64,000 nt of DNA from Ianthella basta (Eukaryota; Porifera; Demospongiae; Verongiida; Ianthellidae). The notes under the pieces are model-generated. The model made no database searches and was not told the DNA's origin. It worked only from the letters and a program-made list of their open reading frames with translations. This document shows, piece by piece, positions 10,013 through 63,356 of this stretch. Location: the NCBI GenBank assembly GCA_964019415.1, contig OZ025884.1:6162733-6226732 (forward strand). Direction: 5' to 3'. The translations under genes were made by a program, and so were the position numbers. The first letter of the stretch is position 1, and every line of letters begins with the position of its first letter.

Positions 10013-10084
10013 GAGTTAGAGTGGAGGTGTTTACAGATTCCTGTATGTTCAGATATATGAACTTCACATGCACCCTTCTTGCAC

Positions 10085-21231: not shown

Positions 21232-21562
21232 CTTGATGCTTCTCTTGCCGGATTTCTTTCTCACAGAAACTTTCGCTCGGCTACCACGAGGGTTAGAGGG
21301 GGCAAGATGATACTGAGCATGCGCAGTTGATATATGGCCCAACCCCTTATCAGCTGTTTGTCACGTTCCATTCTAGTCTATCCAGCTAGACCTCTTTCGC
21401 GTTTTCGCGTAACCGAAAGTAACGAGCAGGGAAAGGCGCCTTAACTGCCCGTTACTTCCGGTTACGCGAAAACGCGAAAGAGGTCTAACTCGATTAGTTC
21501 CATTCCTAAAATTGCGCAATCACTATAGCCGGTTCCCCCACTCCAGCCCGCCACCAAGGGAC
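21232..21562. promoter_or_regulatory. Shared upstream region of eEF2 and RCE1
   Basis: Only 331 bp separate the two divergent start codons, so both 5' untranslated regions and core promoters must lie here. No TATA box is evident on either strand. The dominant feature is the inverted repeat at 21387-21487. Confidence 0.6.
21387..21487. repeat. Foldback repeat inside the eEF2/RCE1 promoter
   Basis: Two 38-bp arms, differing at one base, flank a 25-bp loop. The arms run TAGACCTCTTTCGCG... to ...AAGTAACG. The right arm contains ACTTCCGG, a consensus ETS-family site; the left arm has the matching site weakened by one change (CCGAAAGT). TTTCGCG elements, resembling half of an E2F site, are repeated in both arms. 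It could be a small mobile element or a regulatory palindrome; the motif functions are inference. Confidence 0.7.
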
Positions 21563-38918: not shown

Positions 38919-41900
38919 ATGTCGAAGACGAAGACGAATCTTTATGGTGGAGGTAGCTCTTTTCTTCTTATAACAGGTATTGAGTTAGCTATGTAGAGTC
39001 TAACTACGTTTTACTTTGCACTGTGTTTCTGGCAGAGTTACTTTCGCAAGGCTAAAGCTATGATGCATATCATGATGGGCACGCATGCATATGCTCTGCC
39101 TAGCCGGTCTGTGAGGCCAGTAGCTATAGCTATTACGTAGCTATCCTGTGGCTGCAGCAAATGGTAAATTGCCTGTAGGTCATGTAACTGAGGACTCGGA
39201 CATACATAGATCAAGTCAGATGCAATGGAGAAGTCTCTTGAATTAAGGCCCAGGAGGAGTGGGTCTGCCTGATTACGCTAGGCAGGAGATTCCACTCCCA
39301 TGCCCCCCTAGCTGCAAAAGACCTCCGACTCCATTCAGTCATGTTTGGGGAGATGTGGAGCTTTTCAGCCCCTTGTGTGTTCTGAGAATGATACTGATCA
39401 TAATTGGTGCTTTGTACTCTGATAGTACCTCACATTCACATAAAGGACTAAACTGCTCTGCCATGTTATACAAAAACTTGAGTAGCTAGGAAGACTTCTC
39501 TCAAATAAATTGCAGAAATGCTAGCCAACAATCACAAATGTAACTATCTGCTGAGAGAGACAGGGAACGGGATCCCTTCTGGGATTAACCGATTGCATGT
39601 GCATGTTCAATGACTTGTCATTCTTGTAATTTAACTTAATTGAGTAATTTTTTAAGTAATCGTTTCCTGCATGCTATTTTGATTTTGATGTTCTATATTA
39701 TACCATCACAAATCAATGGATACTCCATGTGATTGCTGCATGGCTAGTGTTTCCACAATTTGTTTGAGCTGCACTGACATGTGTTCCCTACAAGCAGCAC
39801 CCACTGTTCAACGGTGGATCCAGGGGTGTTTCCAAGGTTTCCAGAAACTGGTCAGATCACCTCTGGCTAGTATTTGCATGTATCAGTCTTATAATGTATA
39901 TGCTTCCTTATAGCTATACCTTCATGCGTTGGAAACCAGTCATAAAAGTTTCTCGATCCGCCCTAGCTGTTGGCATGTATCAGTATGTCATTGGGTTCAA
40001 TTTCGGTTTTCATTTGCTGTACTGGTAATGTATGATTGTATAATAGCTATAGCTATGGCCAATACTCATATAATGTATGCACTGTCTCGTGCAGTCTTTT
40101 CCTCATATGTCAAAATAACCATTGATAAATCAATTAAATGAGCATATCTCTCCACAATCTCTTTACAGTGTTGGTTACACTTCAACCTTCACTGGATTCT
40201 GCCCAATTTACTGGTGGATCCAACGTTGAATTGACTGTTCCTGAGCTTACGACAGGAGTTCTTTATCAATTTCATATTGTGGGTGATCCAGAACTGGATG
40301 ATATTGTGTTTGCTGAGACTGGTGGGCATAGTGTGCTAACTGTGAATGACACAGGCTTTCTGCTGGTCATGGGCACCTTGGACTTTGAAACCCGGTCCAT
40401 GTATGAACTAGTGGTTGAGGCTATGAATGCCTTGAATGGCAATACCCTTGCTACTGCAACCGTGACTGTTCAGGTAACCAATATCAACGATCATGCCCCT
40501 GTGTTCACACGGGACACCTACACCGTCTACCTACCCTATGAAGGTGAACCATCAACATACGACATATCCACCATGTGCTCTGATTTTGACGCAGCCCCTT
40601 ACAATGTATTACAATTCACTGCTCAAGAATTTATCCCTCAAAATGGTAGTGAGTTCCTTGCTGTTGATGCAAGTGGGCTAATTCAAAGGATGCAAGATAT
40701 CACTTCCACCCGTCCGACAGAGGAGTACCAGTTCACTGTACTGTGCTTTGATAGTCCAGACGCAGGAGACAGTCCCATGGCAGACTCTGCTGGTGTGACT
40801 GTTGTTGCTCAAGCACTCAACATAGCCCCCCCTGTTCTACCATCTTCTCTTGTATTCAATGTGACAGAAACCAGAGACTCCAACACCCAAGTGGGTACTT
40901 TTACTGTCACTGACCCTGATCCACAAGACACTATTACTGTTGAGATAACTGGTGGAGCCTCTGCAAGATTCTTTCTACAATCATTAGGAAATGGCCAGTA
41001 CGCTCTAGTCTCTACCCAAGAACTTGATAGAGAGTCATCTCCTTCCCTTACTGTAATTGTCACAGCTAGAGATGGGCCTGAGGATTTCTATCGCACACAG
41101 AGTTCAAGCATTGCCATCCGAGTTAATTTGGAGGATGTGAACGACAATAGTCCGCAGTTCATTGAGAGTAGTGCTATGGTTACTATTGCTCAAAGCCACC
41201 CTCTGAATATGGCAGTATATAATGCACGTTGTACTGATCAAGATGTGAATGATGAAATTTCATACAGCATATCCAGCGGAGCTACAGGCACCTTTTACAT
41301 TGAGCCATCAAATGGATCCATTTTTCTGGCTCAGGATGTGGATCGATCCAGTCTGCTTGGAAGTCATTTTCTTGCTGTCATTTGTACTGATGGAGTAAAC
41401 ACACCCGTAGCTTTCATAGACATCACAGTCACCTCAAACAACACCAGGGCACCACAATTTAGTCACTCCTCTCGTGTGTCACTGAATCTCCCTGAAGACA
41501 CTGCAGTGAACACAGTAATATTTGATGTCAATGCCACTGACGATGATGGAGATAGTGTATCCTATCACCTTGTTGACTTTGCATCTAACAGCCAGTACTT
41601 TTTGGTGGACTCCATGTCTGGACAGGTAACCCTAAAGCAGGCCCTTGATTTTGAAGGTGATTTCTCCCAATTTGAACTGTCCATTGAAGCAGTGGACGAT
41701 GCCAGCCAACCACTGACTAGTACAGTTACTATTTTTGTGCAGGTGGAGAATGTGAATGACATACCACCAACCTTTGCTAGTGCTTCGTATACTGTCACCG
41801 TGCCTGAGTCGAATGCTGTTGTTCCACCAGTGATCACCCCAGAGAATTTCTTTCAAGCCCAGTGTCAGGATCCAGAAGATCTTCCAGTTACCATCAAGTA

Positions 41901-44900
41901 CCGTATCATTCAAGTAGACCCAGACCCAATTCCATCTGGCTTTGATTTGGTCATCGACGAAGACACAGGGAATGTGTCCTCTACTGCTCCCATTGACTAT
42001 GAAACCATTGGTCCTGTTCGTTACACTGTGACACTTCAGTGCTATGATATGGATCAGCCGATCTTGAATAGTACTGCAACACTCGAGGTGATAATCGAGA
42101 ATGTTAATGAGTATCCACCAATGACAGATGGGTCCAAATTCTTTGTAGCAGATGAGAGCCTACCTATTGGAAGTGTAGTCATCAGTTTTAACAGCAGTAT
42201 TGATGGTCTACGGAATGTGAATGTAAGTGATCGTGACAGGGATTCTGTTTTTCGCTATACTTTGTCAGGACTGAGTAACCTCTTCTCCATCGATAATGAG
42301 CGCAGTGTTCTTGTGTCTACTTCTGAACTCAATACCGATGACACTACTCTCTTTCCAGCAATGGCTTGCATAACACAAACCAGTCCATACTGTAAGATCA
42401 CTATTCCAATAACCATTTGTGATGGTGATACAGATAATACTGACTGCCTGGCTGAGCAGTACGTTTTGATTGTAAGAGCTCTCAATGATGACAGTCCCAT
42501 GTTTGATCAGAACAGATATGAGACTGACGTTAGTGAAGGCTTGACCGGGCCGGCAGAACTACTAGCTATCATGTGCAGTGATAGTGATCTATACATTGGG
42601 GGTCAACTGACTGTCACTATTGTGGATCATCCAATCGCAGAACAAATGTTTGAAGTATCACCAACTGCTGTCACCTTGCGCTCTGGCCTAACTCTGGACT
42701 ATGAAGAGCGGGTAGGCTATAGCTTCTTGGTACAATGCACAGATGGTACTGACACTGCTACAGCGGATGTGGTCATCAATGTCCTAGCAGTGAATGAACA
42801 TAGACCAGTCTTCACCAATACCCCTTTTGATTTCAGTATCTCAAAGACCACTCTGCCATCTGTTATTGCAACTTTGTCTGTAACTGATGGAGATGAGGGT
42901 ATTGGAGGTACTCTGACATACACACTGGAGCCAGCAACCTCTACATTTGATGTGGTAAAGACAAGTGATTTAATGCAGAATGCCTTCTTTTTCTTGAGAC
43001 AGGACCTTTCTGAAAGTTTGATTTTACGGTTTGAATACAATGTCACAGTGTCAGATGGCACCTTTACCACGGTGGAACCTATAACTGTTGTCATCACCGA
43101 TGGAAACTTCAACAGACCACAATGGGTAGATGGATTTGGACCCATTTCATTAAATATTCTAGAACACAACCCAGTTGGCTCCCTGGTCCATACTCTGAGG
43201 TGCACTGATGCTGACACTCCCAACACTGTCAACTCTCTCATCACTTACTCCTTTCACAGGCCCAATTGCCATTTTGCTATCAACAACGAAACTGGTATTA
43301 TTTCAATAGCAAATGTTATTATCGTTCCAGAAGGGGTGGCTAGCCTAAGTTTCACACTTGGCATACAATGTTCTGACAATGGTGACCCACGGCTAATCCA
43401 AACTGGTGATGTTTTTATCAATGTTGCAGCTGTTCCGGACAAGACAACCATACTCATTCCTGGAAATGCTGAAGATATTGTAGTGTCTGTTCCAGAGAAC
43501 TTGCAACTAAATGACATTGTGTCTAACATTGTCACAGCAAACTTTGATGAAAACGAATTTGAGTGTACTATCAATGATGATAATGTCCAGGACATCTTTT
43601 ACACCAGCATTTCTTACCCAAACTGCACCATTCGCCTGAGAACACCACTTGATGCAGATTTAGTCACCACCTATTACTTCCCAGTAACTGTTTCAGACAC
43701 TACGAATGTCACTGTGAATGTTACGGTGTTCGTTCAAGATGTAAATGACAATGAACCCAATTGTTCTCTAATCAATGGGAGAGAGTTCCAGGTTGAAGTA
43801 AGTCGTGAGCCTGACTCGGTTGTAGCAGAACTGAATTGTGTGGATGTGGATGTTGGGGAAAATGGAAATGTTAGCTATGCACTCAACCACCCCTTGTTTG
43901 GCGTAATGCCCCCTTCCAGTCTGATAGTGACAGAAAACCTGACTTCAAGCTCAGCTACAAGGCACTTGCTGGAAATCACAGCTACTGACAATGGGGTGGA
44001 TGTGAAACGCAGCACTGTGTTTTATGTGACTGTGGTAGTTGACCTTGTTAATGTTGGACCACCTTCATTTGAGAATCTTCCTGCAGTTATCATGGTTGGC
44101 GAATCTACAGCTATTTCCAGTGTGATATTCTCTATTAGTGCAAGTGACCCCGATACAGGTTTCTTTGGAAGCCTAGTTTTCAGTAAGGTGTCGGGTGATC
44201 CAATGGATTTCTTTTTGATTGGGAATGAGGGCAATGTGAGGCTACTTCGTGCCCTTGATGCTTCAGATACTGACACCTTCAACATCACTGTTTCAGTAGC
44301 AGACCCAGACACTACTGTGACATCAACTTTAACATTCCTTGTGCGCGAAGTGAATGATTTTGCTCCAGTTTGTACCCAAGATATCTACTTCACAACTGTT
44401 TTGGAGGGCAGTGGGGAGACCGTATATCCAGGTCTTGTGGACTGTGATGACCGGGACAATGGTGTCAGTGGCACCATCATCTACAATGTTCAACCTGGAC
44501 TGCATGAAAACTTCTTCACTGTAAGCAGCGATGGAACTATTACACTTGCTCCCATGATTGATTTTGAGCAGTTTGAAGAATTGAGTGTGTCCATCAATGT
44601 ATCAGATCGAGGAACCCCAGCCCAATCTATACAAGTAACGGTCAGGGTTAGTATCATTCCTGTCAATGAGCACACTCCAATGATTTTGAATACTGTCTTA
44701 CAAGCAACTATTTCAGAGGGAATAACAGTGGGTTCCAGCTTTTACAGATTTGAAGTAAGTGATCAAGATAGAAACACTCATCGAGATGGACAGTTTTTTG
44801 TCTTTTTGGACGGCACTGACCATGCAGACTTTGGTATACTGGCCAATGGTGATGTAGTGACAGCTGCACCTTTGGATTTTGAGAGACGGAACAGCTACAG

Positions 44901-47900
44901 TCTGACTGTTACAGTAAGGGATAATGCCATAATGTCAAGAAGCTCTACTGCCACATTTACTGTCATAGTAGAGAATGAGAATGACCTTCCTCCACAGCTG
45001 TCTGAGGACCTGTACACGGGCACCATCCGGTCATCTGATGGACTGGGTGCTACTGGAGTACAAATCACCTGTACAGACACTGAATTCACTCCAACTCGGG
45101 CAGTTACATTGCAGCTGTTGTCTGCTCCTAGTTTCTTAAGCATCTCTACAGCTGGTAGCATAGTCGTTGTCAGCACCATACCAGAGGTAGACATGCTATA
45201 TGTCTTTGATGTGGAGTGCGCAGACTCTGGTTTGCCTGTGCTCACAGCCAGGTCATCAGTTTCAATTTTAGTGTCAGCAGGTACCCCAAACATCACCTTT
45301 GTTGATGCAACACCTATGGTCACATTTAGCGAATCAACTCCTGTGTTTGATACTGCTGAAGGCAAGAGCACTCGCATTCTAACCGTTATTGCCCGTGCCT
45401 CAGGCACAGTTCTATACAGTATGACACACAATACATTCTTCATTGAAGAAAGGACAGGTATTGTGAGGCTGAAGAGTCCTTTGGACTATGAGACAGTAAC
45501 AACTTACTCACTGATCATTCGGGCGTCTCTCAGCACTAACCCCATCATCTACAATGAACTGCAGGCCCAAGTAAGTGTTTTGAATGAAAACGACAATATA
45601 CCAGTCTTCATTACAGACACTTTCACTCTCAGCCTCAATGAAAGCTCTACTGAAGGCCTGCAGAATGCAGTAGTGGAATGCTTTGACAATGATTCACATC
45701 CATTTGGAACAGTACAGTACTCCATCAGTACAAATTCTTTGTTTGAAGTGTCAAGTTCAACTGGTAGAATCTCTCTCTTAGGTGGAATGGTACCTGACTA
45801 TGAACAAGCCTCTCAGTACACGCTCACTGTCACCTGCTCTGACGGTGAACTGACAGATGAAGTAACTGTTTTCGTTGAAGTGTTGCCTGTGAATGAATTT
45901 GCCCCACAGATCACTAGTAGTACAGAAGCAATGATATCAGAAAGCACTGGAGTTGGAGCTCCAGTGAAGCAGCTTACTGCAGACGATGCTGATGACTTTC
46001 CTCATGACACCATCAGGTACTACATTATTAGTGGAAATGAGAAGCAGAAATTCCAACTGAATGAGGCTACTGGTGAGCTGTTCCTGATCAGCAACCTGGA
46101 CTATGAAGAAGACACAATGTTTAGTCTGCAGATTGAAGTCAGAGACGATGGCGAACAGGACTATCAGTTCATGGCACGTTCCTCAATCACCGCCATTACA
46201 ATCCTCATCACTGATGAGAATGACAACAGCCCAGTGTTCACTGAAGAAGTATACATTGTGTCTGTGCGGGAGAATGCTTCATTAACAACTGTGATTGAGA
46301 CTGTCAATTGTACAGATGGGGATTCAGGACCAAATGGAGTACAGGAAATTATGATAACCAACAGTGATGAGAACCCTGTACCATTTCGCTTGAGCACCAG
46401 CTTGCCTCTTGGCTTTCTGGAGGCAACTCAGCCTCTTGAAGCCAGACCATACATAGTGCAGTTGATGTGTTCAGATGGAGGAATGCCACCAAGGACAGCA
46501 TCCTCAGTGGTGATAGTCAGTGTCACTCCACGTGTGGAAGAAATTCGATTCACTATGAACCTTTATTCGTTCAATGTTCCTGAGTTAGAAGCTGTTGCTG
46601 GGCACGTTGTTGGGAACATTGAAGCATATGACAACATCACAGATAGTTTTGCTTATGAGATAGTGGGAAGGAATTACAGCACCTTTTTCATTACTGCTTC
46701 ATCTGGACAGCTGAGACTCTTGCGAGCATTGGATTATGAGAACCCAGATGACCGATTTTTCCATTTTACAGTACGTGCAACTAAACCAGATGGTGCCTCA
46801 GCAGAAGTAGCAGTAGCAGTGTCAGTTTTGAATGAGAATGATGCTGGTCCAATGTTTTCTGACACCATCTACTTTGGGCAGGCCAGAGAGTCTCAGCCCC
46901 CACCACTATCGATTCCTGTGGGAATCAGCTGTACTGATGTGGACAATGATGCTGATACTAGTAGGAGTCTAATTTATTCCCTGGAAGGCACTAACAGCTT
47001 CATCATTGATGATACAAGTGGTGCTCTAAGCACTAAATCAGTGCTTGATGTAGAATCTCTACTGCAGCATCAGTTCACTGTTGTTTGCACAGATTCTGAT
47101 GGACTTAGTGCAACTGCCAGTGTGCGTGTGACTGTTCTGCCTTTCAATGACTTTGCCCCTGTGTTTGCATCTGAAAATTACCAACAGAATGTCATAGAGG
47201 GAAGAATTGTATCATCTGTTATCCAAGTCATAGCCTCTGATGGTGACTTTGTCAGTTATGGCACTCCGGTCTACAGCATTACATCTGGTGACCCAGAAGA
47301 AAGGTTCTCAATCAGTAGTACTGGTGTCATTAGAGTGGTGAATCCACTGGACTATGAGACCCAGACCCAGTACATTCTCACAGTGCGAGCAACAAACATC
47401 ATTCCACCCGATGATGAGAGTGGCTCAAAGCAGAAGAGCGATTTCACCACTGTGACGATAGATGTTATTGATGTGAATGATGTGCATCCCCGCATCAGTC
47501 CGGCTGATGCTATTGTAACAAATTTGCAGCGGGACTCAGCAGTGGGGTCTGTGGCAGTCATGTTTACATGCACCGATGAGGATTCCAGTAATGCAGGCCA
47601 AGTGGAAATGTCCATTTTTGGTACTGAGCAGGACTTTGAGCTGAATTCGGCTGGTCTTCTTGTAACCACAGTGACACCACTTCAGGCATACTATTACATT
47701 GAAGTACTATGTAGAGATTTTGGTTCCCCATCACTGTCAGCCACTGCCACAGTGGTGATTTCTGCCAACTCAACAAATTTGAACCGCCCAGAGTTTGTCA
47801 ACCTGGAACCTACCATCACTGTTGAACCAGATAACCTCAACAATACTGACTGTGTGTATTTTGTTGATGCTCAAGATGCTGATGGTGCAAACACCCCAGA

Positions 47901-50900
47901 AGGTACTCTACGTTTTACCCTGACCCCAGTACCAAGTACACAAACAGCTTACTTTGCCTTTAATAGCACAGCTAGCTGCATCTACCCAATGAATGGCCAA
48001 GAAATAGACCTTGGAGACAGAAGCACAGTTCTGCAGTTCACATACAGACTAACAGTGGAAGATAACGGAGTGCCGGCACTGAGTGACAGTGTTTTACTTC
48101 AAATCTTCATTAGTGCCAACACAGCTCCCACCCTTCCAGCCACTGTGGAGCCCATTGGAATCCTTGAGTCTCCCTCACCCAGCTTAGGGGAACAGCTCAT
48201 TGATGTACCCTGTTATGATGTGGATTTCAATGACCCTCTCACAATGACCATCTGTGAAGGCAATGATGAAGGTATATTTGGCATCTCTGTGAGTTCAAAG
48301 AGCATTGCAGATGATGGTAGGGGCATGATAGTAGGCAGCCTTGCCATTCTGGCTGGGAGGCAGCTGGACTATGATGCAGGCACAAGAGGGTATGCCCTCA
48401 CTATCCAGTGCTCTGATGGACTTCTTGCAGCCACCACTTTGGTCATGATCAATGTCCTACCTGTCAATGAGCACAGCCCAACGTTTGTTGGTGATGGTAC
48501 ATTTAACATTTTAGAGAATGTCTATGTGGGTTACAGAGTTACAACTCTCATCTCCACTGATGGGGATGCTGGGGAAGATGGTAATGTGCGGTTTGAGCTT
48601 GTGTCAGAGTCTGTGCCTTTCAGCCTTGCACCAACTGGTGAGCTTACCGTCAGTGAAGCTCTGGACTATGATACCGGAGCTGGAGGGTACCCACTGATGG
48701 TCATGGCTTATGATAGAGCTGCTTCTGGTGATAATGATCCAGATAGAAAAACACACTCTAGTAATGTTGTAACGTTTCTGGTGAATGTAAATGATGAGCC
48801 TCCAAAGTTTCCAGAAGGCATAATGTACGATTTCACTGTTGATGCAACACAAGCTGTCAACTCCATTATTGGTATGGTGAACTGTACAGACACTGACCTG
48901 GAGATTGCCACTGTGATATCATATACCCTGCTGAACCAAGCAGTGGGCACCTTGTTTCATGTGGACAGTTCCAGTGGAGAAATAAGGGTTGCAGGTGATC
49001 TTCTCCAACGTGAATTTGACAACTATGGCCTCTTGATCCAGTGCTCAGACAGTGGTGTGCCCATTCTGGGCAGCATTACTGAAGTCATCATCAGTATTAT
49101 TGAAATCAACAGTCACTCACCTTTATTTGTGGATCCACCTCCTCATGTTACTGTGTCTGAGTCACACACTCTAACTGAAGTGCTCCAGCAGTTTAATGCA
49201 TCTGATAATGATCCCGGACTGTATGGCAAATTGACGTTCTCCATTGATCCAGACACAAACCAAGATGGCATCTTCACCATCACACCATCCACAGGAGAGT
49301 TGAAGCTGCTACGACTGCTGGACTTTGAAAGGGAACAGTCACACCAACTCACCATTGTGGTGACTGATGGAGCAGAAGACACTACTAACCGCATGACAGC
49401 TACCACTACATTCACTGTCTTTGTGAGGAATGTTAATGAGCGTGCTCCAATCTGCACCCAACCTCTCTATATTGGCTATGTTGATGACGGAACACCCGTC
49501 AGTGCCATTGTCTTGCAACTCAACTGTTCTGGTGGGGATAAGTCTGATGATGTTACCTACTCACGGGGAGCAGGTAACCTTAGTCCTTTTAATCCTGAAT
49601 TTAATGTGGGACAACAAAATGGAGAGATTCATTTGGGTGTGCGTCTGTCATCAAGCTCAGGGGGGACAAGAGAGTTCTATGAGTTTGTAGTCCATGTTAC
49701 TGACACCATTGACCCCAGAAGGACAACAGATATTGATGTGCAAATAGCATATTTGTTTGGAAATGACCATGCCCCGGTGTTTGAACAGTTAACCTACAAC
49801 TGGATGTTGAAGGAGGATAGTGCCATTGGTACCAACTTTGCTGATGTAACAGCTACAGACAGTGATCGTGGGATTCAAGGTCAGGTCACGTATTCCCTTA
49901 TTGGACCAGATTCAAGCTTTGTCCGAATCAACTCAGAAACTGGAGCAATTCTCCTTGCCAGCACACTAGATCGGGAAAGTCTTTCATTGCTCAACTTTCA
50001 AGTGGTAGCCACTGATGGAGATCCATTCTCTCCCATGGTTGGCAGTGCAGATGCTACTATTGAAGTGCAGGATGTGAATGACAACCATCCACTCTGTGTT
50101 CCAATGTACCTAACTGTACCAGTCGTAAGTGACACTGGGGTGGGCACTGTAGTGGCACAGCTGAATTGTATTGATGCAGATTTGGGAGAAAATAGGAGGC
50201 TAATGTACAGTGTGAGCCCCTTAACGCCTGTAACACCATTCTCAGTTGATTCCAACAGTGGTGCTGTGATGGTGGCAGGCCCCCTTCAACCTTCAACATC
50301 CTTCCTCATCACAATTCTGGTGTCAGACTTTGGCTCTCCATCACTAAGGAGTGAAGTAGATGTGGTTTTTGAAGTGTATCGCAAGAACAAGTTCCCACCT
50401 ATGTTTGGAAGCTCTGAATATAGCTTTCCCATTGATGAGACCATTGCGGTGCTGGATTCAATTGGTGTTGTTGCTGCAACTGACAGGGACAGTCCCACTG
50501 ACAGTTTGAGGTACAGGCTTGCTTCAGCCAACCCAGATTTCTATGTGAATCCTGAAAGTGGGGCGATCCTTGTAACTGCCCCCATGGACTTTGAGGTGCT
50601 GGACAGGTTTGTCTTTTCAGTTATTGTTGAAGATGGAGGTAGCTTCAATGGATCTGATGTTCTGTCAGACACAGCTACTGTCACAGTCATCATTAACAAT
50701 GTCAATGACCATGCTCCAGAGCTCAGTGGAATTGGCATTTATGGCACTAATGTGAATGTTACTGCCTCAATGGGAACTTCAATCCTTGAGTTCATGTGTG
50801 AAGATGATGACTCTGGCAGTTTCGGTGTTGTCACTGTAGCACAAGACCCAATTGACATTCCTTTTGCTACTCAAGGAAGCTCTGGTCACTATAGCATTGT

Positions 50901-53900
50901 GATCAATGAGGACCTCACTGTAAATGGTGGAACCAGTTACACAGCTAATATCTCTTGCACTGATGGAATGTTTTCCACTGTAGGACAGGTGTTCATTGCT
51001 ATTTTGCGTCCTGGTAATCCGAAGTTCTCCCAGGCGGTTTACCAATGGAACCTTCCTGAGGATACCCCAGTAGGGACCAACTTCACACAGATCTCTGCTG
51101 AGAAAACTAGTGGGACAGCTTTGACATACAGTATCACAAATGGGAATGAGGATGGCCATTTCAGAATCAATCGTGAAAATGGTATTCTTCAGCTTGCCTT
51201 CTCAGTAGACTATGAGCTGCAGCGAAGGCATGGACTTATTGTCCGAGCTACAGACGGAAATGGTAACTTTTCTGAAGTGCTTGTCATCATTATTGTCCTG
51301 AACGCTAGTGAGAGGTCAGACATGGCTCTGCCATCAGGAAGGTATCTTGTGGCCCATGATACACCAGTGAACGAACCATTCGGACAGCTGAAATGCTCCA
51401 ATGATACCTTACAAAGAGGAGATACCTTCAATTTCACCTTCATTCCACCTTCTGAATTCTTTAGTGTAGACGAGTATGGAACAATGCGTTTGTTGAAGCA
51501 GCTAGATGAAACACCAATACATGTCCTTCCAGTGATCTGCTACAGTCTCACTACAGATGAACCTGAGGTTGCATCAGGCATTGTCACTATCACTGTTCAA
51601 TTCGAAAACAATCATGTTCCAACATTTGACCTGGATATTTACACAGTCACTGTACCAGAGAACCTCAATGCCTCAGAATCAGTGAAGCAAGTTGTGGCAA
51701 GAGACTCTGACATTGGTAGCTTTGGAGAAATTTCTTATGCTATTGAAAGTGGAAACTTTGGAAACAAGTTCTTTATTAACTCAAGCACAGGTGAAATCGG
51801 TCTTCTGTCAGCACTGGACTTTGTTACAACCAGAGAATACAACTTAACAGTAGTGGCTGTGGACGGAGGAGCAACTGCTCCCGATGGCAAGCGCTTCTCT
51901 GGCTCAACCACTGTGTTTGTCCAGGTTGAGGATGCCAATGACAATATTCCAGTCTTCAGTCAACCTATTTATGAGGCTGCCATCTTGACAGACCATGCAC
52001 TCCTTGGCTCTGTTGTCAATGTTAGCTGCTCAGACGGTGATTCAGGTGTGAACCAACTCATAGACTATGACATCCTTCCCACCTCAGACAAGTTTGCTAT
52101 CACCAATGAAGGCAGCATCCTCTTAACAGGAGACCTCGAAACTGAAGCTGTCTACAATCTAAGAGTGCGTTGCACTGATAGAGGAACTCCTATGCTATCA
52201 TCATCTGTACAAGTTGTCATCATTGTGTCTCCTATTAGTGTAGGTGCTCCTATCTTTGATGAGGCTAGTTACAATGCTTCCATACCCGAAGATCATCCAG
52301 TGCTTGGCGATTTCCTCCAGGTGTCTGCAACGCCAGCCAACATCAACATTGGTGTGAGGTACTCCATTGTGGATGGTGAGGGCGACGGAGCAGAGCAGTT
52401 TGGCATTGATCCTATCTCAGGTTCTCTTTTCACCACTGCACGCCTCAACGCTGTCGAGAAGAGCACTTACTATGTTCTGGTTTCTGCTCAGAATGTGGGA
52501 CCCAATGAACTGAATTCACATGTGTTAGTGTCCATCACAGTAACTGATGTGAATAACAATGCACCTGTCTTCACACCAAGCAACTTCTATCGAGGCACTG
52601 TCAGTGAGTCAGCTGTTAGATTTCAACCAGTCCTTTCTGTGACCTGTGAAGATGGGGACTTGCCAGAAAATGCGGAGGTATCTTACCAAGTGACCAGCTC
52701 TAACAGTTTGTTTGACATTAGCAGTGATGGTGTGGTGTTTGTGAACACTGCTTTGGATTATGAAACTAACGTGGATCACACCATCACAATCTCCTGCAGC
52801 GACAGTGGAACTCCACCTCAGTCAGCTACAGCTACTGTTCTGATCAGGGTGACCCCTGTCAATGAGTATCCACCAATGTTCACAATGGATACCTATACTA
52901 TCCCAGATGTGGCTGAGGACACTGCTGTGGGTAGCATTGTTGGCCGGGTAGCAGCAACAGACAGAGATAGTGGCAGAGACGGTATATTCTCTTTCCATGT
53001 CTTTGAGCCCAACCCATCATTCCAAGTCAATTCTGATAACGGCTCAATAACAGTGATTCGTCCTTTGGATTATGAAGCCTCTCGTGAACATGCTCTGACT
53101 GTCATTGTTGAGGATGAAGGTGGAGAAGCAAGCACTGCTCAGTTAGTAATACAGCTGAGTGATGTGAATGACAACAACCCAGTTTTGACACCAACTGCTG
53201 CTGCTGTAGACATTCATGTGAGTGAAAGGGCAGGTCTCCTGGTGCAGCGGTTTGCTTGTGAGGATGAGGACACCGTACCAGTTGGTGATCCCACATTGTC
53301 AATAGCCTCCACTACTTCTCCCAAATTTGTCCTTGATGTGAATAGTCAGCTTGTGATGAATAGCACTTTTGAATCACCTGCAGTACACAGTATAAAAGTC
53401 CACTGTGCAGACAGAGGTGGGCGCATTGCGCTCACATCAGCTGTGGCAATCACCATCTATGAAGACAGGAACCTCATACCTCAGTTTGTGCCATCCAACA
53501 GATACGAAACAACCATCGACGAAGGTGACTACACTGATGTGATTGTGTACACTGTCAGTGCTGAAACACAATCAGCTAGCTTTGTCACTTTCACAATATT
53601 TGAAGGTGGTTCAGAGTTTTCTGTAGATGCCTCAAGTGGTGATGTGAGGATAACTGGCACGCTGAATCGTCAGGTTCAAGCTGTACATCATGTCATCATC
53701 CAAGCAACAGCCAATGGACACTCCTCACTAGCAGTTCTTGTTGTCAGGGTGCGAGATATCAATGATAATGTGCCTGAGATAATCCCAGCAGAACAGACCA
53801 TCTTTGTACAAGAGACGATCTCACCTCCCTCCTCAGTGTCAACAATCATCTGTGAAGATAGCGATGAAGGAAGTAATGGAGAGACTTCTGTCAGCATTCC

Positions 53901-56900
53901 CAGTGGACAGACTGCAGATGGGCTGTTCAGTGTGACTCCAGACGGGGTTCTCTCTCTAATAGGAGCTCCTGAATACGACTCAGGTGTGACCCAGTACAAC
54001 ATCACTGTGATGTGCCATGATAGGGGCTCTGATCCCCAAATGACTACAGGGACAGTTATCATCATTGTAGAACCTGTCAATGAGTACAGACCAGTGTTTG
54101 ACCCTTCAGTATACCTTGTTCAAGTATCAGAAGATATCAGTGCTGGGTCCACAATTCAGCAATTGAATGTATCTGATTTTGATGGTGGAAATGATGGTCA
54201 GTTCTCTCTACAAGTCACCACCAGCATTGGATCCAGTGACTTTGTCACCAGTGGTCAGTCACTTGCTATAACTAGCAGTTTGAATGCAACACGGCAAACC
54301 TTTTACAACCTTGAGGTGGCTGCTACCGACCGAGGCTCCCCCATCAGCTTGACAGGGTATGCTGATGTAGACGTGTCTGTCACTGATGTTAACGAAGCAC
54401 CATACTTTAGTGAAGAGGTGTATGTGGTGTTCGCTTCAGTTGAATTGCCAAGTGGCTCAATTGTGGGAGATATTACTTGTATTGATGGAGACACCAATCA
54501 GAATGCAGAATTGAGCATTTCAATGTCCAGTTCTGGCGATGCTGATATCTTTCAGCTTGCAATCCTATCCTCTCGGCCAGGTCAGACTGTAGCTCGTATC
54601 TTTACAAATGTTGACAAGCTCACATTACCTGTGAAAACCCTCACATTTGTGTGCAGTGACGGAGGAGTGCCTTCTCTTTCAGACACTTCCACAATGATTA
54701 TCACCATCACACCAATGAACAAAAGACCACCTGTCTTTGTCAACTTCATGGGATCCGTTACTGTGGAGGAATCTGCATCTGTTCCAGTGGTCATCTTTGT
54801 CGTGTATGCAACTGATGTGGAGACTCCCACAGGCATTACATATGCAATAGTTGGAGGCAACATCAACAGCACCTTTTCCATTGATGAAGGTACTGGGAAA
54901 GTAATTCTGAACAAACGGCTGGACTATGAGGTGCAGCCAGCGTACAATCTCACCATTCGGGCATACGATGCTTCTCGAGTTAACCCAATGTTCACAGATG
55001 TGGTCTTGTTTGTGAATATTCTTAACAACAATGATTTCCAGCCAGTAATAACAGGTCCGTCAGCCATCACACTGGAAGAGAATCAACGCACTGGTGTGAT
55101 GCTTGCTCGATTCACTTGCACTGACAGGGATGGGTTTGCTGTCCGCTTCCTCATAGAAGGTGACCAGTACAACCAATTTGTAATTGATTCTCGTACTGGC
55201 AATCTCCAACTATTGAGAGCACTGGCCTATGAAGAAACAAGTGAACATTCTCTGACCATAGTTTGCACAGACAATCCCCCTACAGAAGCAGGCCTTCCAA
55301 TGTCCTCTTCCCAAAGCATTGTAGTGTCTGTGACTGCAGTTAACTTCTATGCTCCAGTGTTTGAAGGTGCCAACTCTTCAGTCCCATACAGGTTTAGTGT
55401 GATGGAGAACACAGAAGTGGACATGGCAGTACCAATAGGCCAGGTGATTGCCTCTGACCTTGACAATCGGCAAAGTGCTGTCATCACATACACTGTGGTA
55501 GAAAGGGATCCTCACATACTGGCTTTTGTGGTTGATAGACTGACGGGTGTCGTCTCACTTGTGTCCACTGTGGATCGAGAAATGAATCCTTCTTTCAGGC
55601 TTACCATTGAGGCTGATGATGGAGACATGATTGCTGGTTCTCTTACATCTTCAATCAATGTCACAGTTGACATTGTTGATGTCGATGACAACAGGCCAAA
55701 ATGCACAGAAGAGACATTTGTCCACTTGATTGTGGAAGGTGATTACAACAGGTTATCTCTAGCTGCTCTCAACTGCAGTGATGCTGATGAAGGACCTAAT
55801 GGAGATCTCTCATACACTATTGTGAGTCAGGACACATTTGGTGGAGCAACATTCACATGGAATGTAGACAAAGGCATCCTTGAGCTGACTGGAACAGTAC
55901 TGCCAGGCGTTATTAATCTCTGTGTGCAAGTCAGTGATCAGGGAACCCCAGCTTTCTCACTGAATGTGCAAGTCATTGTCAACATACAAGTGAATGATTC
56001 TGTATCTTTACAGTTCATCCCAGCTGTGTTTAGGACAGCTGTGAGAGAGAATGAGACTATTGGTGCTGTGATCTTCAATGGGGAAGACTTAAAAATGGCA
56101 CTAATGTTTGGCACACAGACAGACCCTGACTTTGCACTGCAAAGCAGTGACAATGATGTTCTTCAGCTCTTTTCAATAGAATCAAGCACTGGTGACATGA
56201 TTCTCAACAGAGAGCTAAACTTTGAGAGCAGAACTGAGTATGGCATAGTGATTATGGCAACTGATGCCCAGTATGAAGCTTTTGCCATCCTTATTGTAGA
56301 AGTAATAGATGTGAATGACAACAGACCAGTTTTCTCCCAGTTAGATGGTTATCAAGCCATCATAGATGAGAATGCAGTTGTCATGGTGATACAAGTGCGA
56401 GCTGATGATGTGGACACAGGAGAAGGAGGACGAGTCAGTTACAGTTTGGTAGAGACTCCAGAGAGTCAGTTCTTTACCATTGATAGCAACACTGGATGGA
56501 TCGCTACTGTGAATGAGATTGACTATGAAGTTTTCAACTGGTTAATCCTCCAAGTGGTTGCCTCAGACAATGGCTCTCCTCAGCTCACCTCACACACAAT
56601 TGTCACTGTCTCTGTGAACAACCTCAATGACAACCCACCTACCTTCAACCAATCAGTGCATGTTATATACATCACAGATTCTGACCCTATTGGTACTAGA
56701 CTGGCCAGGTTCAAAGCCTCTGATGCTGACAACCTGGAGCCACTAGACTTCCTAGTGAGTGCAGATCCATGCCCTGATCCCTCTCTCCCAAGACTGGATG
56801 TAGTCACTCAGCTGTTTGATGTGGATGACAGCACACAAGAACTGACGCTGATTGGTAGTGTACCCACTGGTGTGTCCACCAACTACTACTTCACTGTGTA

Positions 56901-59846
56901 TGTAACCGATGGAGAGATGGTGGGCACCACTTGTGTGAATGTATTTGTACGTGAAGTGACTCTCCTTGAAGCTGTCTTCCTTGAAACTGATGTCATTGGT
57001 GATTTCCTCTACAATCTGACGTGGAATATGAAGGCGAAGGCTGTTGATGTTACCCGCAGTACAATGTATGCTATCATTGGGGGGAATGATGATGGAGTGT
57101 TTGGTGTGAGAAATAGTGATACCATTGTGAATGAAATGGAGCTGGATAGGGAGGATATTCCTGAGCACCGCCTTCTGATTGACGTTTTTGACCATCAAAC
57201 AGGCGTGAATGCAACAGCTTTGCTGCGCATCGTGGTCCAAGACATAAATGACAATGCCCCAATGTTTACTGAACCTTCATACTCATTCAGTGTAGTCGAA
57301 GGTGTCCGTGATGATCCAGGTGCATTACTTCTGGGCACATTTGTAGCTGAAGATCCTGATTTCTTGTTGAATGGTGAAGTGCGTTACTCAATCGATGGTG
57401 ATGGCACTGTATTCAGTTTCAACAGCATCACTGGAGAGCTGTCTTTGCTGGCCATTTTAGACAGAGAGGAGACACCAGAGTACAACTTCAATGTCATTGC
57501 AGAAGATTTGGCACTGGACAGTCAATCTGCCTCTGCTGCAGTGACGGTAACCGTGACTGATATCAACGACAATCCTCCAATTTTCTTTAACCCTGTAACT
57601 GAAGCATCCATCTTGCCTGGGGCCGGACCAGGCTCTCTCCTAGTCACCCTCACTGTCACAGATGCAGATGAAGCCTCAAATGCTGACATCTCCTTCACCC
57701 TCGCTTATGCCCCAACGCCAAGTGAGGAGCTGTTTACCATTGTCAAAGAGAATCCCTCATCTGGCAGGTTCATTGCAAGATTACAAGCTGTAAAGACTAT
57801 TGTAGAGGCATATCATGGCACCAGCATCATCCTGAGGGCAATGGATGGCGGACAGCCTCCCCTCTCCTCCACTATCACCTTTACTCTCAGAGTGCAGAAT
57901 ACTCTCCCCCAGTTTCCCACAGCTGTGTACACGTCTCAGGTTCTTTTTGAAGAGCTCGTTGACAAAGAAGTGCTGGTTGTGACTGCTACTGACCATGATG
58001 GACAGAGAGTAAGATACACAAGACAGTTGATTCAGGCTGGGTCTGAAGTTCCGTTCGCTGTCAACGCTGAAAATGGTGCCATCACCACAAATAATCCTAT
58101 CACACTGAACTGGCCACATAAGTACCTCTTTGAGGTAATTGCGGAGGATAACAACCAACCAGCGATGGGTAGGGCAACTGCATTTGTAGCAGTAAACATC
58201 TACAACACTAGCCACCTCTTGATTCTGAAGTCATGTAACTCGACCACAGTGCTGCAGAACAACCGGGAGCCTCTAAGAGCTGCCCTTGAAAACTGGTACA
58301 ACAGCAATGGATTTACAGGATCCCTGTTTATATACAATGTCACAGAACGAGAGGACGAAGATGAAAACAGGTAAGGCATTGTTACCAAGTAGTGCACATT
58401 GTGTTGCTACATGCACTGTCCTCAATAACCTCTGATGCTGGATTATTGTGCATGGAGAAAGGGCTGTAAAGTGAATTATACATAGCAAATGGTCATCTTT
58501 GTGTGTGATTTGATGTATGTATGTATTGCTTGCACATATTTTTGCCTGTGTGAGACTCTAATATAATTATGACAAAACACATTTTTCCATATTTGTGTAC
58601 TCCTGTAACATTGGATTATGTTGTTTCTGAAGCAATTATTGTGAGTATGTTATAGTTATGTACTGTACATTCTTCTGTATTGTAGTTTGTGAAGTATGTA
58701 CAAAGTGTATGCTTCTTTCCAATCCAATTGAACATTTGGTACATGTACAGCTGTGCTGTACGTATAAAGTGCCAGGTATTTTTACTTTATATAAGACTCA
58801 GCATGTGCTTCTATACTACTATAGGGTTCAGTCCCGTGTGCTGGTGTACTTTGTGATTGGTGAGTTCTACCAGAACTGGACCAGCCCTCTCGTTCCAACC
58901 ATGGACACAGCACAGGACTATACCAAGAGCTTTGCTTTTGGCAAAAATCTGCAGAGCACCATTGGCTTAAGGCTGAAGGAAGGCAGTCTCTTCAATAACA
59001 TCTGTATTGTAGGGAGTGATATCATCAAAAAACCAACTAATGTGCACATGACATTGGATGTGGCTGCTTGGATAATAATTGTGGTGGCAGCAGTGGTTGT
59101 GGTGCTCTTTCTAGCATCAGCCTGTACCTTGATCCTGTGCATTTGCTGTTACTGTGCACTAATGGGCCGGAAAGCAGAACAGTGAGTGGTGCATGGGAAT
59201 GTATTGTGGAAGTGGCAGCTGATACACATGCATGTACATGTAGGCAAGAGTTCTGTGGCATGTGGCATGTACATACATAGTATGACTACCAACAGTGTTG
59301 ATTATTATGCATGGGCTGCATGTGCTTGTACAGCCCATTGTTATATATTTCCATTATTGTGGAGTACTTGGGCTGACGCTACACAGTCCAAACCAGTACA
59401 ATGTGTGGTTCTGAAGGCTCACCTTATTAGCAAGTGTGTCTTTATTAGTGTAATATTTTGGCTGTCACATTAACTGATTGTCCTGCAGAATCTCCTTGTA
59501 TACTCAGATGTATGAAACTCTAAACGAAGAAGCTGACGATGACAGTAATGACAGCAGCAACTATGACCTTACTGAAGCATTAACACGGGACCAGGATGAT
59601 CCACAGATTCAGTTGGCGTCACTCTCCAAGTTGCAAAGCAGCCATTCTGCAGACTCTAATACAGGTGTCAATGCTACAGCTGAAACAATGCTGACTTTGG
59701 AAGATGTGGATGAACATAGTGAGCAGGCTCGAAATATGGATTTAGCTATAGGCTACGCTGCAGCCACTGATGATGAAACAGTGTTTGATGACATGGAGGA
59801 CACAAGTGAGAGCACCAGACCTATCAGTATTTCAAGCCCACTGTGA
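38919..59846 (+). CDS. Giant transmembrane cadherin, about 57 cadherin repeats, 6324 aa
   Basis: Four coding exons: 38919-38976, 40169-58370, 58825-59181, 59489-59846; phases agree and the sum is 18,975 bp. I reject the ATG at 40138 because a clear acceptor (CTCTTTACAG) follows it and joining exon 1 builds a signal peptide (SSFLLITVLVTLQPSLDSA). The 18.2-kb exon encodes about 57 cadherin repeats averaging 107 residues, recognised by A/CxDxD, LDYE/LDRE and DxNDN motifs. No EGF, laminin G or other module was seen. Exon 3 gives a non-cadherin membrane-proximal segment, the transmembrane helix and a Cys-rich juxtamembrane stretch. Exon 4 gives an acidic, Ser-rich tail of about 119 residues ending ISISSPL. 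It probably mediates calcium-dependent cell-cell or cell-matrix contact. No clear beta-catenin site is visible, though DDDSNDSSNYDL is faintly similar. Orthology to Fat, Dachsous or CDH23 is not decided. Confidence 0.93.
39813..39963. repeat. 151-bp MITE with GGGCGGATC ends, copy 2 (cadherin intron 1)
   Basis: Inverted copy of 15486-15637. The right end CGATCCGCCC is intact; the left end reads GGTGGATCC and has diverged by a base. It lies about 200 bp before the acceptor of the giant exon. Confidence 0.75.
40490..56010 (+). other. Alternating cysteine/non-cysteine cadherin repeat array (repeats 2-50)
   Basis: Within the giant exon, each even-numbered repeat from 2 to 50 has a cysteine in the CxDxD-type motif. 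In 20 of those 25 a second Cys sits in the VxCxDxG motif about 55-60 residues later (repeat 2: codons at 40576 and 40744). Odd repeats 1-49 have Ala, Val or similar at both places; only repeats 7, 11 and 25 contain cysteines, and those are elsewhere. In five even repeats (12, 14, 30, 32, 50) the second Cys is absent from its usual site and a new one appears right after the linker Pro (near 43760, 44371, 49452, 50096 and 55701). The pattern ends after repeat 50. Confidence 0.85.
59063..59160 (+). other. Cadherin transmembrane helix and Cys-rich juxtamembrane segment
   Basis: AAWIIIVVAAVVVVLFLASA is a clear single membrane span, followed by CTLILCICCYC with five cysteines at the cytoplasmic face. 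Such clusters are often palmitoylated. The following residues include RK, consistent with a cytoplasmic side. Confidence 0.8.
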
Positions 59847-62234: not shown

Positions 62235-63062
62235 TTAGAAAAACTGCACACGATTGTTCCCCAAGTCAACTACACATACCACACCACTGTGATCAACACA
62301 TATTCCCAGAGGTCCATTAAACCTCCCTGTAAGAGAACCTTCCCTTCCAAACACGTGAACCAGTTCACCTTTCAATGTGTATACCATTACCTTGTGGGAG
62401 AAGAGTGAAGTGATCAACAAATGGTTGTCACTAGTAGCAGCAATGTAGTGAGGATCATACTTGGGCTGAAAATCTCTTTTAAAAGTACCTCCCTTGGACC
62501 ACACAGAAATTCTTGCATTCCCATTATCAGCAATATACACAAGGCCATCTGAACCAAACGTTATGCCAAGAGGTCTATCAAAACACCCTGGGCCACTTCC
62601 TTTTGAGCCAAAAGCAAACAGAAACTTGCCCTCTTCACAGTGAACAGAGACACGGTTGTTGCCATTGTCACAGACATAAATCAGACCTTCTGTGCTAACT
62701 GATACACCATCAGGATTGCTGAGACTGTCTCTTTCGCTACTTGCATGGTGTATGGTTTGAAGAAGTTGGCCATTTTGGGACAGCTTGACTACTTTATTGC
62801 CGTAATAGTCTGTAACCCAAACATTCCCTTTCTGATCAAAGGCAACGCCACGCAACGAATCACCACCAAGCACTTCTTCGCCAACAGACCTCACCAATGC
62901 ACCCTCTTTTGTGAGAAGATTAACACATTTACTCAACCCATCTGTCACAGCCAGGACCTCACTGTTCACAGCCACTGTTTCATACACACCATTCCCTAGA
63001 CTGTGTTGCTTGACCTTCTGACACTCTCCAAGTTTCCTCCAGTCCCTGAGAGGGTGCTTCAT
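62235..63062 (-). CDS. NHL-repeat beta-propeller, terminal exon of a TRIM2/3/71-like protein (partial)
   Basis: The last exon runs from an acceptor CCACTTGCAG ending at 63063 to the TAA at 62235-62237, about 275 codons. Six NHL repeats are visible, with blade motifs such as LRGVAFDQKGNVWVTDYYGN, PDGVSVSTEGLIYVCDNGNN, PLGITFGSDGLVYIADNGNA and PLGICVDHSGVVCVVDLGNN. This matches the six-bladed propeller at the C-terminus of TRIM-NHL proteins, which bind RNA or partner proteins. The upstream exons that would carry RING, B-box and coiled coil are not found before the window edge, where a retroelement ORF begins at 63357 on the other strand. The gene may continue beyond the window, or it may be truncated. 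The ATG at 63061-63059 is probably internal. Confidence 0.8.
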   Translation of the reverse strand: MKHPLRDWRKLGECQKVKQHSLGNGVYETVAVNSEVLAVTDGLSKCVNLLTKEGALVRSVGEEVLGGDSLRGVAFDQKGNVWVTDYYGNKVVKLSQNGQLLQTIHHASSERDSLSNPDGVSVSTEGLIYVCDNGNNRVSVHCEEGKFLFAFGSKGSGPGCFDRPLGITFGSDGLVYIADNGNARISVWSKGGTFKRDFQPKYDPHYIAATSDNHLLITSLFSHKVMVYTLKGELVHVFGREGSLTGRFNGPLGICVDHSGVVCVVDLGNNRVQFF

Positions 63063-63069
63063 CTGCAAG

Positions 63070-63356
63070 TGGAATTAGGACCAGGGGGTGGGGTCATGAC
63101 AGAGGCCAAGATACAGTAAACTAAGTGGTATATGTCCATTAACCCCCCCCCCCCCCCCCCCGTGCACAACATCATAGGCGGCTAACATACAATAGATGCC
63201 TTCACAGTAGTGTACGTGTGTGTGTGTGTGTAGCAGTAGGATGGAACAGCAGAGACTTTTTCAAGATGGCGGATATGTTGTGACATCACCGTGGATTCGT
63301 TCAGATTCGTTCAGATTGTTCAGAGTATCTCAGAGTATCCTCAGAGACAGGTATCG
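63070..63356. other. Spacer with poly-C run and probable retroelement 5' leader
   Basis: A C run (about 63143-63160) and a short GT run are followed by AAGATGGCGG and tandem GATTCGTTCA and AGAGTATC repeats just before the ORF start. The left end of the retroelement could not be fixed. Confidence 0.4.

What the first reader, a model, noticed from the sequence alone, without database searches (positions are those of the whole stretch)
40490..56010. Cadherin array built of two-repeat units: strict alternation of disulfide and non-disulfide repeats
Seen directly: from repeat 2 to repeat 50, all 25 even repeats have the Cys of a CxDxD motif plus a partner Cys. The 25 odd repeats from 1 to 49 lack both, with other cysteines only in 7, 11 and 25. 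In ordinary cadherin repeats these two positions are usually Ala (ATDxD and VxAxDxG), on neighbouring strands, so an intradomain disulfide is plausible. Alternation over about 50 repeats implies growth by duplication of a two-repeat module, not of single repeats. I know of no described cadherin with this order, but I could not search.
Basis: partly seen in the sequence, partly recalled or inferred. Interest (0 to 1): 0.92.

Follow-up and report, generated by a model that had tools for sequence, protein, structure and literature searches.

The report
Giant cadherin with alternating disulfide repeats
A sponge-type adhesion protein of about 57 repeated domains is built from two-domain units in which every second domain carries a predicted internal disulfide staple and the calcium-binding joints alternate between complete and incomplete, a design also seen in molluscs, annelids and amphioxus and not turned up by our literature searches.

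Summary
Confirmed. One open frame (40138-58371, 6078 aa) holds 57 cadherin repeats. All 25 even repeats R02-R50 have Cys in CxDxD; none of the 25 odd repeats R01-R49 does. In 18 sponge-type proteins in register (window included), 450 of 450 even repeats have the CxDxD Cys with exactly one partner, of constant type per position. New: linkers alternate too. Junctions into a Cys repeat keep 7.96 of 9 Ca2+ ligands, those out of it 4.92. With Cys masked, repeat profiles split by parity (47 of 49 nearest neighbours): the unit is a pair. The pattern holds in 66 sponge-type proteins and, with the alternative pair, in 24 proteins of amphioxus, molluscs, annelids and an acorn worm; vertebrate FAT1/FAT4 and insect fat listed lack it. 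I read it as an old animal cadherin family of disulfide-stapled, Ca2+-clamped pairs joined by looser joints. Disulfides and mechanics are inferred, not measured.

The parts
40138..58370 (+). Giant exon: open frame with 57 cadherin repeats (true start and signal peptide uncertain; an upstream exon is possible)
   Evidence: (Pfam Cadherin PF00028)
40195..40500 (+). R01, odd-type first repeat without Cys
40501..56004 (+). R02-R50: array of alternating Cys (even) and non-Cys (odd) repeats
43759..44064 (+). R12, even repeat with the alternative Cys pair (position 2 + CxDxD)
44368..44679 (+). R14, even repeat with the alternative Cys pair; centre of the second AlphaFold triple
49450..49776 (+). R30, even repeat with the alternative Cys pair
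50092..50400 (+). R32, even repeat with the alternative Cys pair
52252..53181 (+). R39-R40-R41, the odd-even-odd triple folded with AlphaFold2 (pLDDT 94.6)
55699..56004 (+). R50, last Cys repeat; alternative pair plus one extra Cys
56005..58215 (+). R51-R57, membrane-proximal repeats outside the alternation
58825..59181 (+). Predicted exon 2: membrane-proximal segment and transmembrane helix (about 59072-59155)
   Evidence: splice sites and frame read directly; no transcript
59489..59846 (+). Predicted exon 3: acidic cytoplasmic tail ending ...SSPL, stop TGA
   Evidence: Pfam scan of the spliced C-terminus gave nothing above cut-off

Best explanation
A giant transmembrane cadherin whose ectodomain is a chain of about 25 two-repeat modules. 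In each module an odd repeat is joined to an even repeat by a near-complete Ca2+ linker (DxNDN), and the even repeat carries one intradomain disulfide next to that site, tying its B-strand end (CxDxD) either to the F strand (VxCxDxG) or to the start of the A strand. The even repeat then joins the next odd repeat through a degenerate linker (typically PxNE-H/Y/F) that should bind fewer Ca2+ and bend more easily. The protein would work as a jointed tether: disulfide-stapled, Ca2+-stiffened pairs with a more compliant joint between pairs, reaching between cells or projections and resisting unfolding under load. The array grew by duplication of the pair and has kept its parity; it was in place before the window's species and Amphimedon parted, and a module of the same kind exists in bilaterians. 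SHOWN from sequence: alternation, partner rule, linker alternation, parity classes, conservation. INFERRED: disulfide formation, fewer Ca2+, flexibility, tether role, single origin.
For: 25/25 even vs 0/25 odd. 450/450 even repeats in 18 sponge-type proteins (window included) with exactly one partner of constant type, against 14.5% invariant columns elsewhere; 4 of 432 odd repeats have Cys at either position. Over 66 sponge-type proteins, 1585 CxDxD-Cys: F partner only 1243, N-terminal partner only 335, both 3, neither 4; F-Cys in 13 of 1954 repeats without CxDxD-Cys. Linker ligands 7.96 vs 4.92 of 9 in the window, 8.10 vs 5.31 over the 66, 7.94 in 102 Cys-free homologs. Parity classes with Cys masked. 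Spacing of successive Cys repeats even in 1513 of 1519 (sponge-type) and 202 of 215 (bilaterian-type). Same pattern in three paralogs; none in six other giant cadherin frames of the genome, examined in full or part, or in one 6-repeat frame. AlphaFold pLDDT 94.6 and 92.0, best solved match CELSR1 EC4-7; repeat positions 2 and 26 lie in short strand or bridge pieces of R39 and R14. Ca2+-free or partly Ca2+-free linkers bend in PCDH15 and DN-cadherin (PMC5120219, PMC8325961, passages).
Against: No sulfur-sulfur distance, Ca2+ binding or flexibility was measured. In bilaterian relatives the ligand contrast is weak (8.42 vs 7.88 of 9; parity signal in ligands at p<0.05 in 16 of 24), so the looser joints may be mainly a sponge feature. 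29 of 239 bilaterian-type CxDxD-Cys have no partner found, including single-Cys repeats of Argopecten P0154. Parity is broken in Saccoglossus P0046 and in places in seven other bilaterian-type proteins; three sponge-type proteins have an extra unpaired CxDxD-Cys at the wrong parity. The 3446-aa paralog has lost the F partner in R44. R06, R09, R25 and R48 cluster with the other parity.
Confidence: 0.68

Rival explanations
1. The Cys form intermolecular or inter-repeat bonds (covalent bundling of filaments) rather than intradomain disulfides.
For: The CxDxD Cys sits near the repeat's N-terminal end, close to the linker; R50, R10 and R26 have a third Cys; 29 of 239 bilaterian-type CxDxD-Cys lack a visible partner.
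Against: Exactly one partner within the same repeat in 450 of 450 cases, at one of two mutually exclusive positions; bonds between repeats or molecules would not require that.
Confidence: 0.08
2. The two-repeat periodicity is real but serves binding: odd and even faces form a repeating ligand or self-recognition surface, and the linker differences only set the twist between repeats.
For: Repeat-by-repeat correspondence with Amphimedon (41 of 52, counted) shows that positions are preserved individually, as for a long recognition surface; odd repeats are more alike than even ones (0.83 against 0.60, mixed 0.63, without the Cys columns).
Against: No interface evidence was sought; the concerted loss of the Ca2+ ligands that even repeats give to their downstream joint fits a mechanical role more directly.
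Confidence: 0.2
3. The sponge and bilaterian alternations are convergent: CxDxD-Cys arose twice in different giant cadherins.
For: Different dominant partner (F strand in sponges, N-terminus in bilaterians); no collinear repeat register between sponges and bilaterians; whole-protein scores to Branchiostoma only slightly exceed those to vertebrate FAT4 (1181 against 1075 bits); the bilaterian tail motif is absent from sponge-type proteins.
Against: Five sponge repeats use the bilaterian pairing; linkers alternate the same way (DVNDN into, often PVNE out of, the Cys repeat); with Cys masked, Cys repeats of 11 bilaterian-type proteins best match even-repeat sponge profiles in 53 of 109 against 33 of 307 other repeats (Fisher p 2e-15), three control proteins in 2 of 111; both groups end with Cys-free membrane-proximal repeats.
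Confidence: 0.25
4. Ordinary cadherin array in which the alternation is a passive relic of tandem duplication with no function of its own.
For: Even-step tandem duplications exist: P0154 has near-identical four-repeat units, P0007 a second run of R30-R43-like repeats.
Against: Cys and partner type are invariant where 14.5% of other ungapped columns are; a passive relic would decay.
Confidence: 0.05

Closest known systems
Protocadherin-15 / CDHR5 EC1 disulfide (C5-C73 in CDHR5, strands A and F; PMC8691648, passages)
   Same: A single intradomain disulfide in a cadherin repeat, joining two of the strands A, B and F
   Different: Only in the tip repeat EC1 and between A and F; here every second repeat, between B and F or A and B
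PCDH24 EC2 F-G disulfide (C187:C201; PMC8691648, passages)
   Same: Intradomain disulfide in a cadherin repeat
   Different: F-G hairpin, another pair of strands; described for one repeat
FAT4 / FAT1 / insect fat
   Same: Giant arrays of cadherin repeats; automatic names of several relatives say 'Fat 4-like'
   Different: About 34-35 repeats found, plus accessions that I recall as EGF and LamG in their Pfam lists; no CxDxD-Cys in the vertebrate and insect ones listed
Cadherin-23 and protocadherin-15 tip-link cadherins
   Same: Long EC array, then a membrane-proximal segment and TM; some incomplete Ca2+ linkers (PMC5120219, passages)
   Different: 27 and 11 repeats (recalled); periodic disulfides or periodic incomplete linkers not known to me
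DN-cadherin (type III classical) with complete or partial Ca2+-free linkers (PMC8325961, passages)
   Same: Bendable joints, linked by the authors to incomplete Ca2+ linkers
   Different: Few sites among 15 repeats; classical cadherin
Immunoglobulin domain B-F disulfide (recalled)
   Same: A B-strand to F-strand disulfide in a Greek-key sandwich
   Different: Here at the Ca2+ end of a cadherin repeat, not in the core of an Ig domain

Membership tests
Cadherin superfamily | Tandem EC repeats matching PF00028 | tested here: met
   E 6e-58 and 1e-152 for two parts of the frame; 57 repeats; TM 0.86 to CELSR1 EC4-7
Cadherin superfamily | Ca2+-binding motifs XEX, DRE, DxNDN, DXD, XDX | tested here: met
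   near complete at odd-even junctions (7.96 of 9), degenerate at even-odd junctions (4.92 of 9)
FAT / FAT-like | About 34 repeats followed by EGF and LamG domains (recalled definition) | tested here: not met
   57 repeats; Pfam finds no EGF or LamG in residues 4301-6078 nor in the predicted spliced C-terminus
Classical cadherin | Catenin-binding cytoplasmic domain | tested here: not met
   Pfam scan of the predicted spliced C-terminus: only sub-threshold hits, none to a cadherin cytoplasmic family; the gene model is a prediction
CDH23 / PCDH15 | EC array plus a ferredoxin-like membrane-adjacent domain before the TM (recalled) | tested here: inconclusive
   a segment of suitable length lies between R57 and the TM; Pfam gave no hit for it or for two bilaterian relatives; it was not folded
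PCDH15/CDHR5-type EC1 disulfide | A-F disulfide in EC1 | tested here: not met
   R01 has no Cys; even repeats have B-F or A-B type pairs
Alternating-Cys cadherin family proposed here | CxDxD-Cys at one parity with one partner in the same repeat | tested here: met
   window 25 of 25; 66 sponge-type proteins, 1578 of 1585 with exactly one partner
Alternating-Cys cadherin family proposed here | Cytoplasmic FDGxAxDPxT...YEY motif seen in bilaterian members | tested here: not met
   found in 11 of 196 proteins searched, all bilaterian-type, none sponge-type; sponge frames read from single exons may lack their tails

The most novel reading that the evidence does not exclude
An unrecognised cadherin family older than the sponge-bilaterian split, filed in databases as 'Fat 4-like' or 'cadherin-23-like', whose ectodomain is a periodic mechanical device: Ca2+-rigid, disulfide-stapled two-domain segments with a compliant joint every second domain. 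It would be retained in sponges, molluscs, annelids, amphioxus and an acorn worm and be missing from vertebrates and insects (not searched exhaustively).
Probability: 0.5. Interest if true: 0.87.

Novelty: new variant of a known kind. Interest (0 to 1): 0.8.

Why it matters
Cadherin arrays are usually thought of one repeat at a time. Here the unit of structure, of evolution and probably of mechanics is a pair, kept in strict register over 25 pairs and over deep divergence. One three-domain fragment would suffice to test how a cadherin tether sets its stiffness by alternating full and partial Ca2+ joints and by disulfides. It also suggests an adhesion family of early animals hidden under automatic names; sponge choanocyte collars have unidentified candidate linker cadherins (PMC4942974, passages including the abstract), for which a protein like this is a candidate, untested.

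Tried and rejected
First attempt at splitting repeats by a linker regular expression gave only 9 seeds and no domain table; replaced by an iterated self-HMM. A tree of the window's 57 repeats alone gave weak support throughout and no clean parity clades; I moved to profiles built from 18 of the 66 sponge-type proteins. Nematostella 'cadherin-23-like' P0136 and P0134 (a eukprot entry) score well but lack the pattern (P0136 has one CxDxD-Cys). The third protein search, on the C-terminus of a bivalve member, found 7 proteins, the named ones bivalves, so the taxonomic limits remain open; its two new proteins were not analysed. Pfam scans of two bilaterian C-termini and of the window's own gave only sub-threshold hits. 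Literature: the listings of searches (10 to 20 rows each, of more papers) showed no title or abstract on periodic cysteines in cadherins; passages of PMC10734073 and PMC5968619 have no mention of 'cysteine'; Nichols et al. 2012 is not held and was not read.

Rows dropped: domain hits of 45 residues or fewer before counting (one search used them, 103 control repeats instead of 96). The AlphaFold alignments used 19 of the 24 odd-even-odd triples; those starting at R01, R07, R09, R11 and R25 were left out. The Cys-masked bilaterian test used 11 of 24 bilaterian-type proteins. The protein searches listed 120 of 254 and 120 of 1063 hits. Position-2 Cys were counted 19 to 30 residues before the CxDxD Cys.
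Full report
WHAT IS THERE. The + strand holds one uninterrupted frame, 40138-58371, 6078 aa. Pfam calls cadherin and an iterated self-HMM splits it into 57 repeats. There are 64 cysteines. At the B-strand CxDxD column, 25 of 25 even repeats from R02 to R50 have Cys and 0 of 25 odd repeats from R01 to R49. With 25 of 50, one-parity occupancy has a chance of 1.6e-14. Twenty of the 25 have Cys in the F-strand column (VxCxDxG). The other five, R12, R14, R30, R32 and R50, have Val or Ala there and Cys at repeat position 2, straight after the linker proline. R51-R57 lack both.

GENE. Splice sites read directly give exon 2 at 58825-59181 and exon 3 at 59489-59846, a protein of 6315 aa: 57 repeats, a membrane-proximal segment, a transmembrane helix and a tail of about 120 residues ending SSPL. 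Pfam finds nothing above cut-off in the spliced C-terminus. No transcript supports this model, and the true start is uncertain.

THE LINKERS ALTERNATE TOO. Even repeats have largely lost what they would contribute to the joint after them: XEX Glu 11 of 25 against 23 of 25 in odd repeats, DRE Asp 10 against 20, first linker Asp or Asn 1 of 24 against 21 of 24, second linker Asp 4 of 22 against 18 of 23. Counting nine ligand positions per junction, junctions into a Cys repeat keep 7.96 (n=25) and junctions out of one 4.92 (n=24); over the 66 sponge-type proteins 8.10 (n=1534) and 5.31 (n=1504); over 102 homologs without CxDxD-Cys 7.94 (n=3625). Of those 102, 3 show a parity signal in ligands at p<0.05, no more than chance gives; of the 24 bilaterian-type proteins 16 do.

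TWO CLASSES OF REPEAT. For the window alone, similarity without the two Cys columns still favours same parity (z 6.4, 0 of 5000 permutations), but through odd-odd pairs (0.83, against 0.60 even-even and 0.63 mixed), and the tree has 11 parity changes where shuffles average 17.1 and reach 10. With per-repeat profiles from 18 proteins, all Cys masked, nearest neighbours share parity in 47 of 49 (even 25 of 25, odd 22 of 24), z 17.5; with linkers trimmed 44 of 49, z 14.1. A two-cluster cut puts R06 and R48 with the odd and R09 and R25 with the even, 45 of 49 by parity; without linkers 39 of 49. So two classes exist and the unit of growth was the pair.

SELECTION. In 18 sponge-type proteins in register (window included), 450 of 450 even repeats have CxDxD-Cys with exactly one partner, and each ordinal repeat keeps its partner type in 18 of 18; 4 of 432 odd repeats have Cys at either column; 672 of 4630 ungapped non-Cys columns (14.5%) are invariant. 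Over all 66 sponge-type proteins: 1243 F only, 335 N-terminal only, 3 both, 4 neither; the 4 are an extra wrong-parity Cys in P0015, P0017 and P0027 and one repeat of the shortened P0003. Mutual exclusion of two partners for one Cys is what a disulfide predicts.

OWN GENOME. The window lies in an unnamed 209-Mb assembly. Two more full copies (6078 and 6092 aa, 92.7 and 93.3% identical) and one of 3446 aa lie on the same contig; all keep the pattern, save that the short one has lost the F partner in R44. The short copy has a similar start and resumes at the end of R24, so about 24 repeats are missing. Other giant cadherin frames have no CxDxD-Cys: C21 (38 repeats), C8 (40), C2 (18, partial), the C21 9027-aa frame (51 repeats in the part held), C22 (23, partial; one F-column Cys) and another on C17 (28, partial). 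Further cadherin frames listed were not examined.

RELATIVES. Two searches gave 195 proteins. With the window, 90 of 196 have six or more CxDxD-Cys and 106 have one or none. Of the 90, 66 are sponge-type, including the window, Amphimedon queenslandica P0036 and P0044, whose 'scpid' label I recall as Sycon; most of the rest are from unnamed sources and are called sponge-type by pattern alone. Cys-masked profiles put 41 of 52 Amphimedon repeats on the expected one of R04-R55, and show a second run of R30-R43-like repeats in P0007 (counted), which has 69 repeats where relatives have 53. The other 24 include Branchiostoma, Ruditapes, Mercenaria, Mya, Mytilus, Argopecten, Sinanodonta, Potamilus, Physella, Aplysia, Dimorphilus, Paralvinella and Saccoglossus (names); they use position 2 as partner in 206 of 239, F in 4, none found in 29. 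Successive Cys repeats are an even number apart in 1513 of 1519 (sponge-type) and 202 of 215 (others). The exceptions are one place in P0015, P0017 and P0027, and places in P0046, P0126, P0130, P0132, P0133, P0145, P0147 and P0171. Their linkers read DVNDN into and often PVNE-H/F out of the Cys repeat, but the ligand contrast is small (8.42 against 7.88). Vertebrate FAT1 and FAT4 and insect fat proteins among the first 120 hits have no CxDxD-Cys, and a few have one stray F-column Cys.

COMMON DESCENT. With Cys masked, Cys repeats of 11 bilaterian-type proteins match even-repeat sponge profiles best in 53 of 109 cases, other repeats in 33 of 307 (p 2e-15); P0044 17 of 20 against 3 of 37; three control proteins 2 of 111. 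This favours one origin, but no collinear register links sponges with bilaterians and the FDGxAxDPxT tail motif is found only in 11 bilaterian-type members. I hold common descent at about 0.7.

STRUCTURE. AlphaFold2 models of odd-even-odd triples are confident (pLDDT 94.6 and 92.0) and match solved cadherins, best CELSR1 EC4-7 (TM 0.86 and 0.87). Coordinates are not returned, so sulfur distances are unmeasured. In the DSSP strings, R39 has single strand-or-bridge residues at 2 and 26, and R14 has two-residue strand pieces at its residues 1-2 and 26-27, the positions of the alternative pair; R40's Cys27 lies in a short piece just after its B strand and Cys77 in its F strand. That the pieces pair with each other is my inference. 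In the PDB alignments printed, both positions are nearly always Ala and never Cys. Known cadherin disulfides tie A to F in CDHR5 and PCDH15 EC1 and F to G in PCDH24 EC2 (PMC8691648, passages).

MECHANISM. The Cys precedes the DXD motif, beside the near-complete Ca2+ site shared with the odd repeat before it, so Ca2+ and disulfide would together make the odd-even pair one stiff body; the next joint, poor in ligands, would be compliant. Bending at incomplete Ca2+ linkers is reported for PCDH15 and DN-cadherin (PMC5120219, PMC8325961; passages). At about 4.5 nm per repeat (recalled) the ectodomain would span about 250 nm. A long-range jointed tether is my most likely function. Sponge choanocyte collars have unidentified linker cadherins (PMC4942974), a possible site, untested.

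NOVELTY. The listings of nine literature searches of open-licence papers showed nothing on periodic Cys in cadherins; most subscription papers are not held. I rate it a new variant of a known kind.

Noticed in passing
G000:C17:6258105-6268442 (-), in L012-L013: A 3446-aa paralog has a similar start but lacks about R01-R24, an even number of repeats, and has lost one F-column Cys (R44); P0003 looks like the same shortened form from another source.
   Followed up: partly
window 5935-6837 (-) and 8972-10015 (-): Two Cys-rich frames with sub-threshold matches to the fibrillar collagen C-terminal domain (E 5e-4 and 1e-3).
   Followed up: no
window 21413-22354 (+): Type II CAAX prenyl endopeptidase (Rce1-like), E 2e-17.
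   Followed up: no
window 62238-63074 (-): NHL-repeat frame, E 2e-26.
   Followed up: no
G000 C21 4531054-4556025 and around 6250003-6275889, C22 near 3023287 and 3057955: Other cadherin frames of 8.3-9.0 thousand residues without a stop, without the Cys pattern where examined.
   Followed up: partly
P0154 (Argopecten irradians), residues about 447-2591: Near-identical four-repeat tandem units, each with one single-Cys repeat and one four-Cys repeat: expansion in even steps.
   Followed up: partly
C-termini of 11 bilaterian-type members, e.g. P0058 and P0124: Conserved cytoplasmic motif FDGxAxDPxT...YEYNTxTxERRW near the C-terminus, resembling half a WW domain by eye (recalled); no Pfam match above cut-off in the two scanned.
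   Followed up: partly
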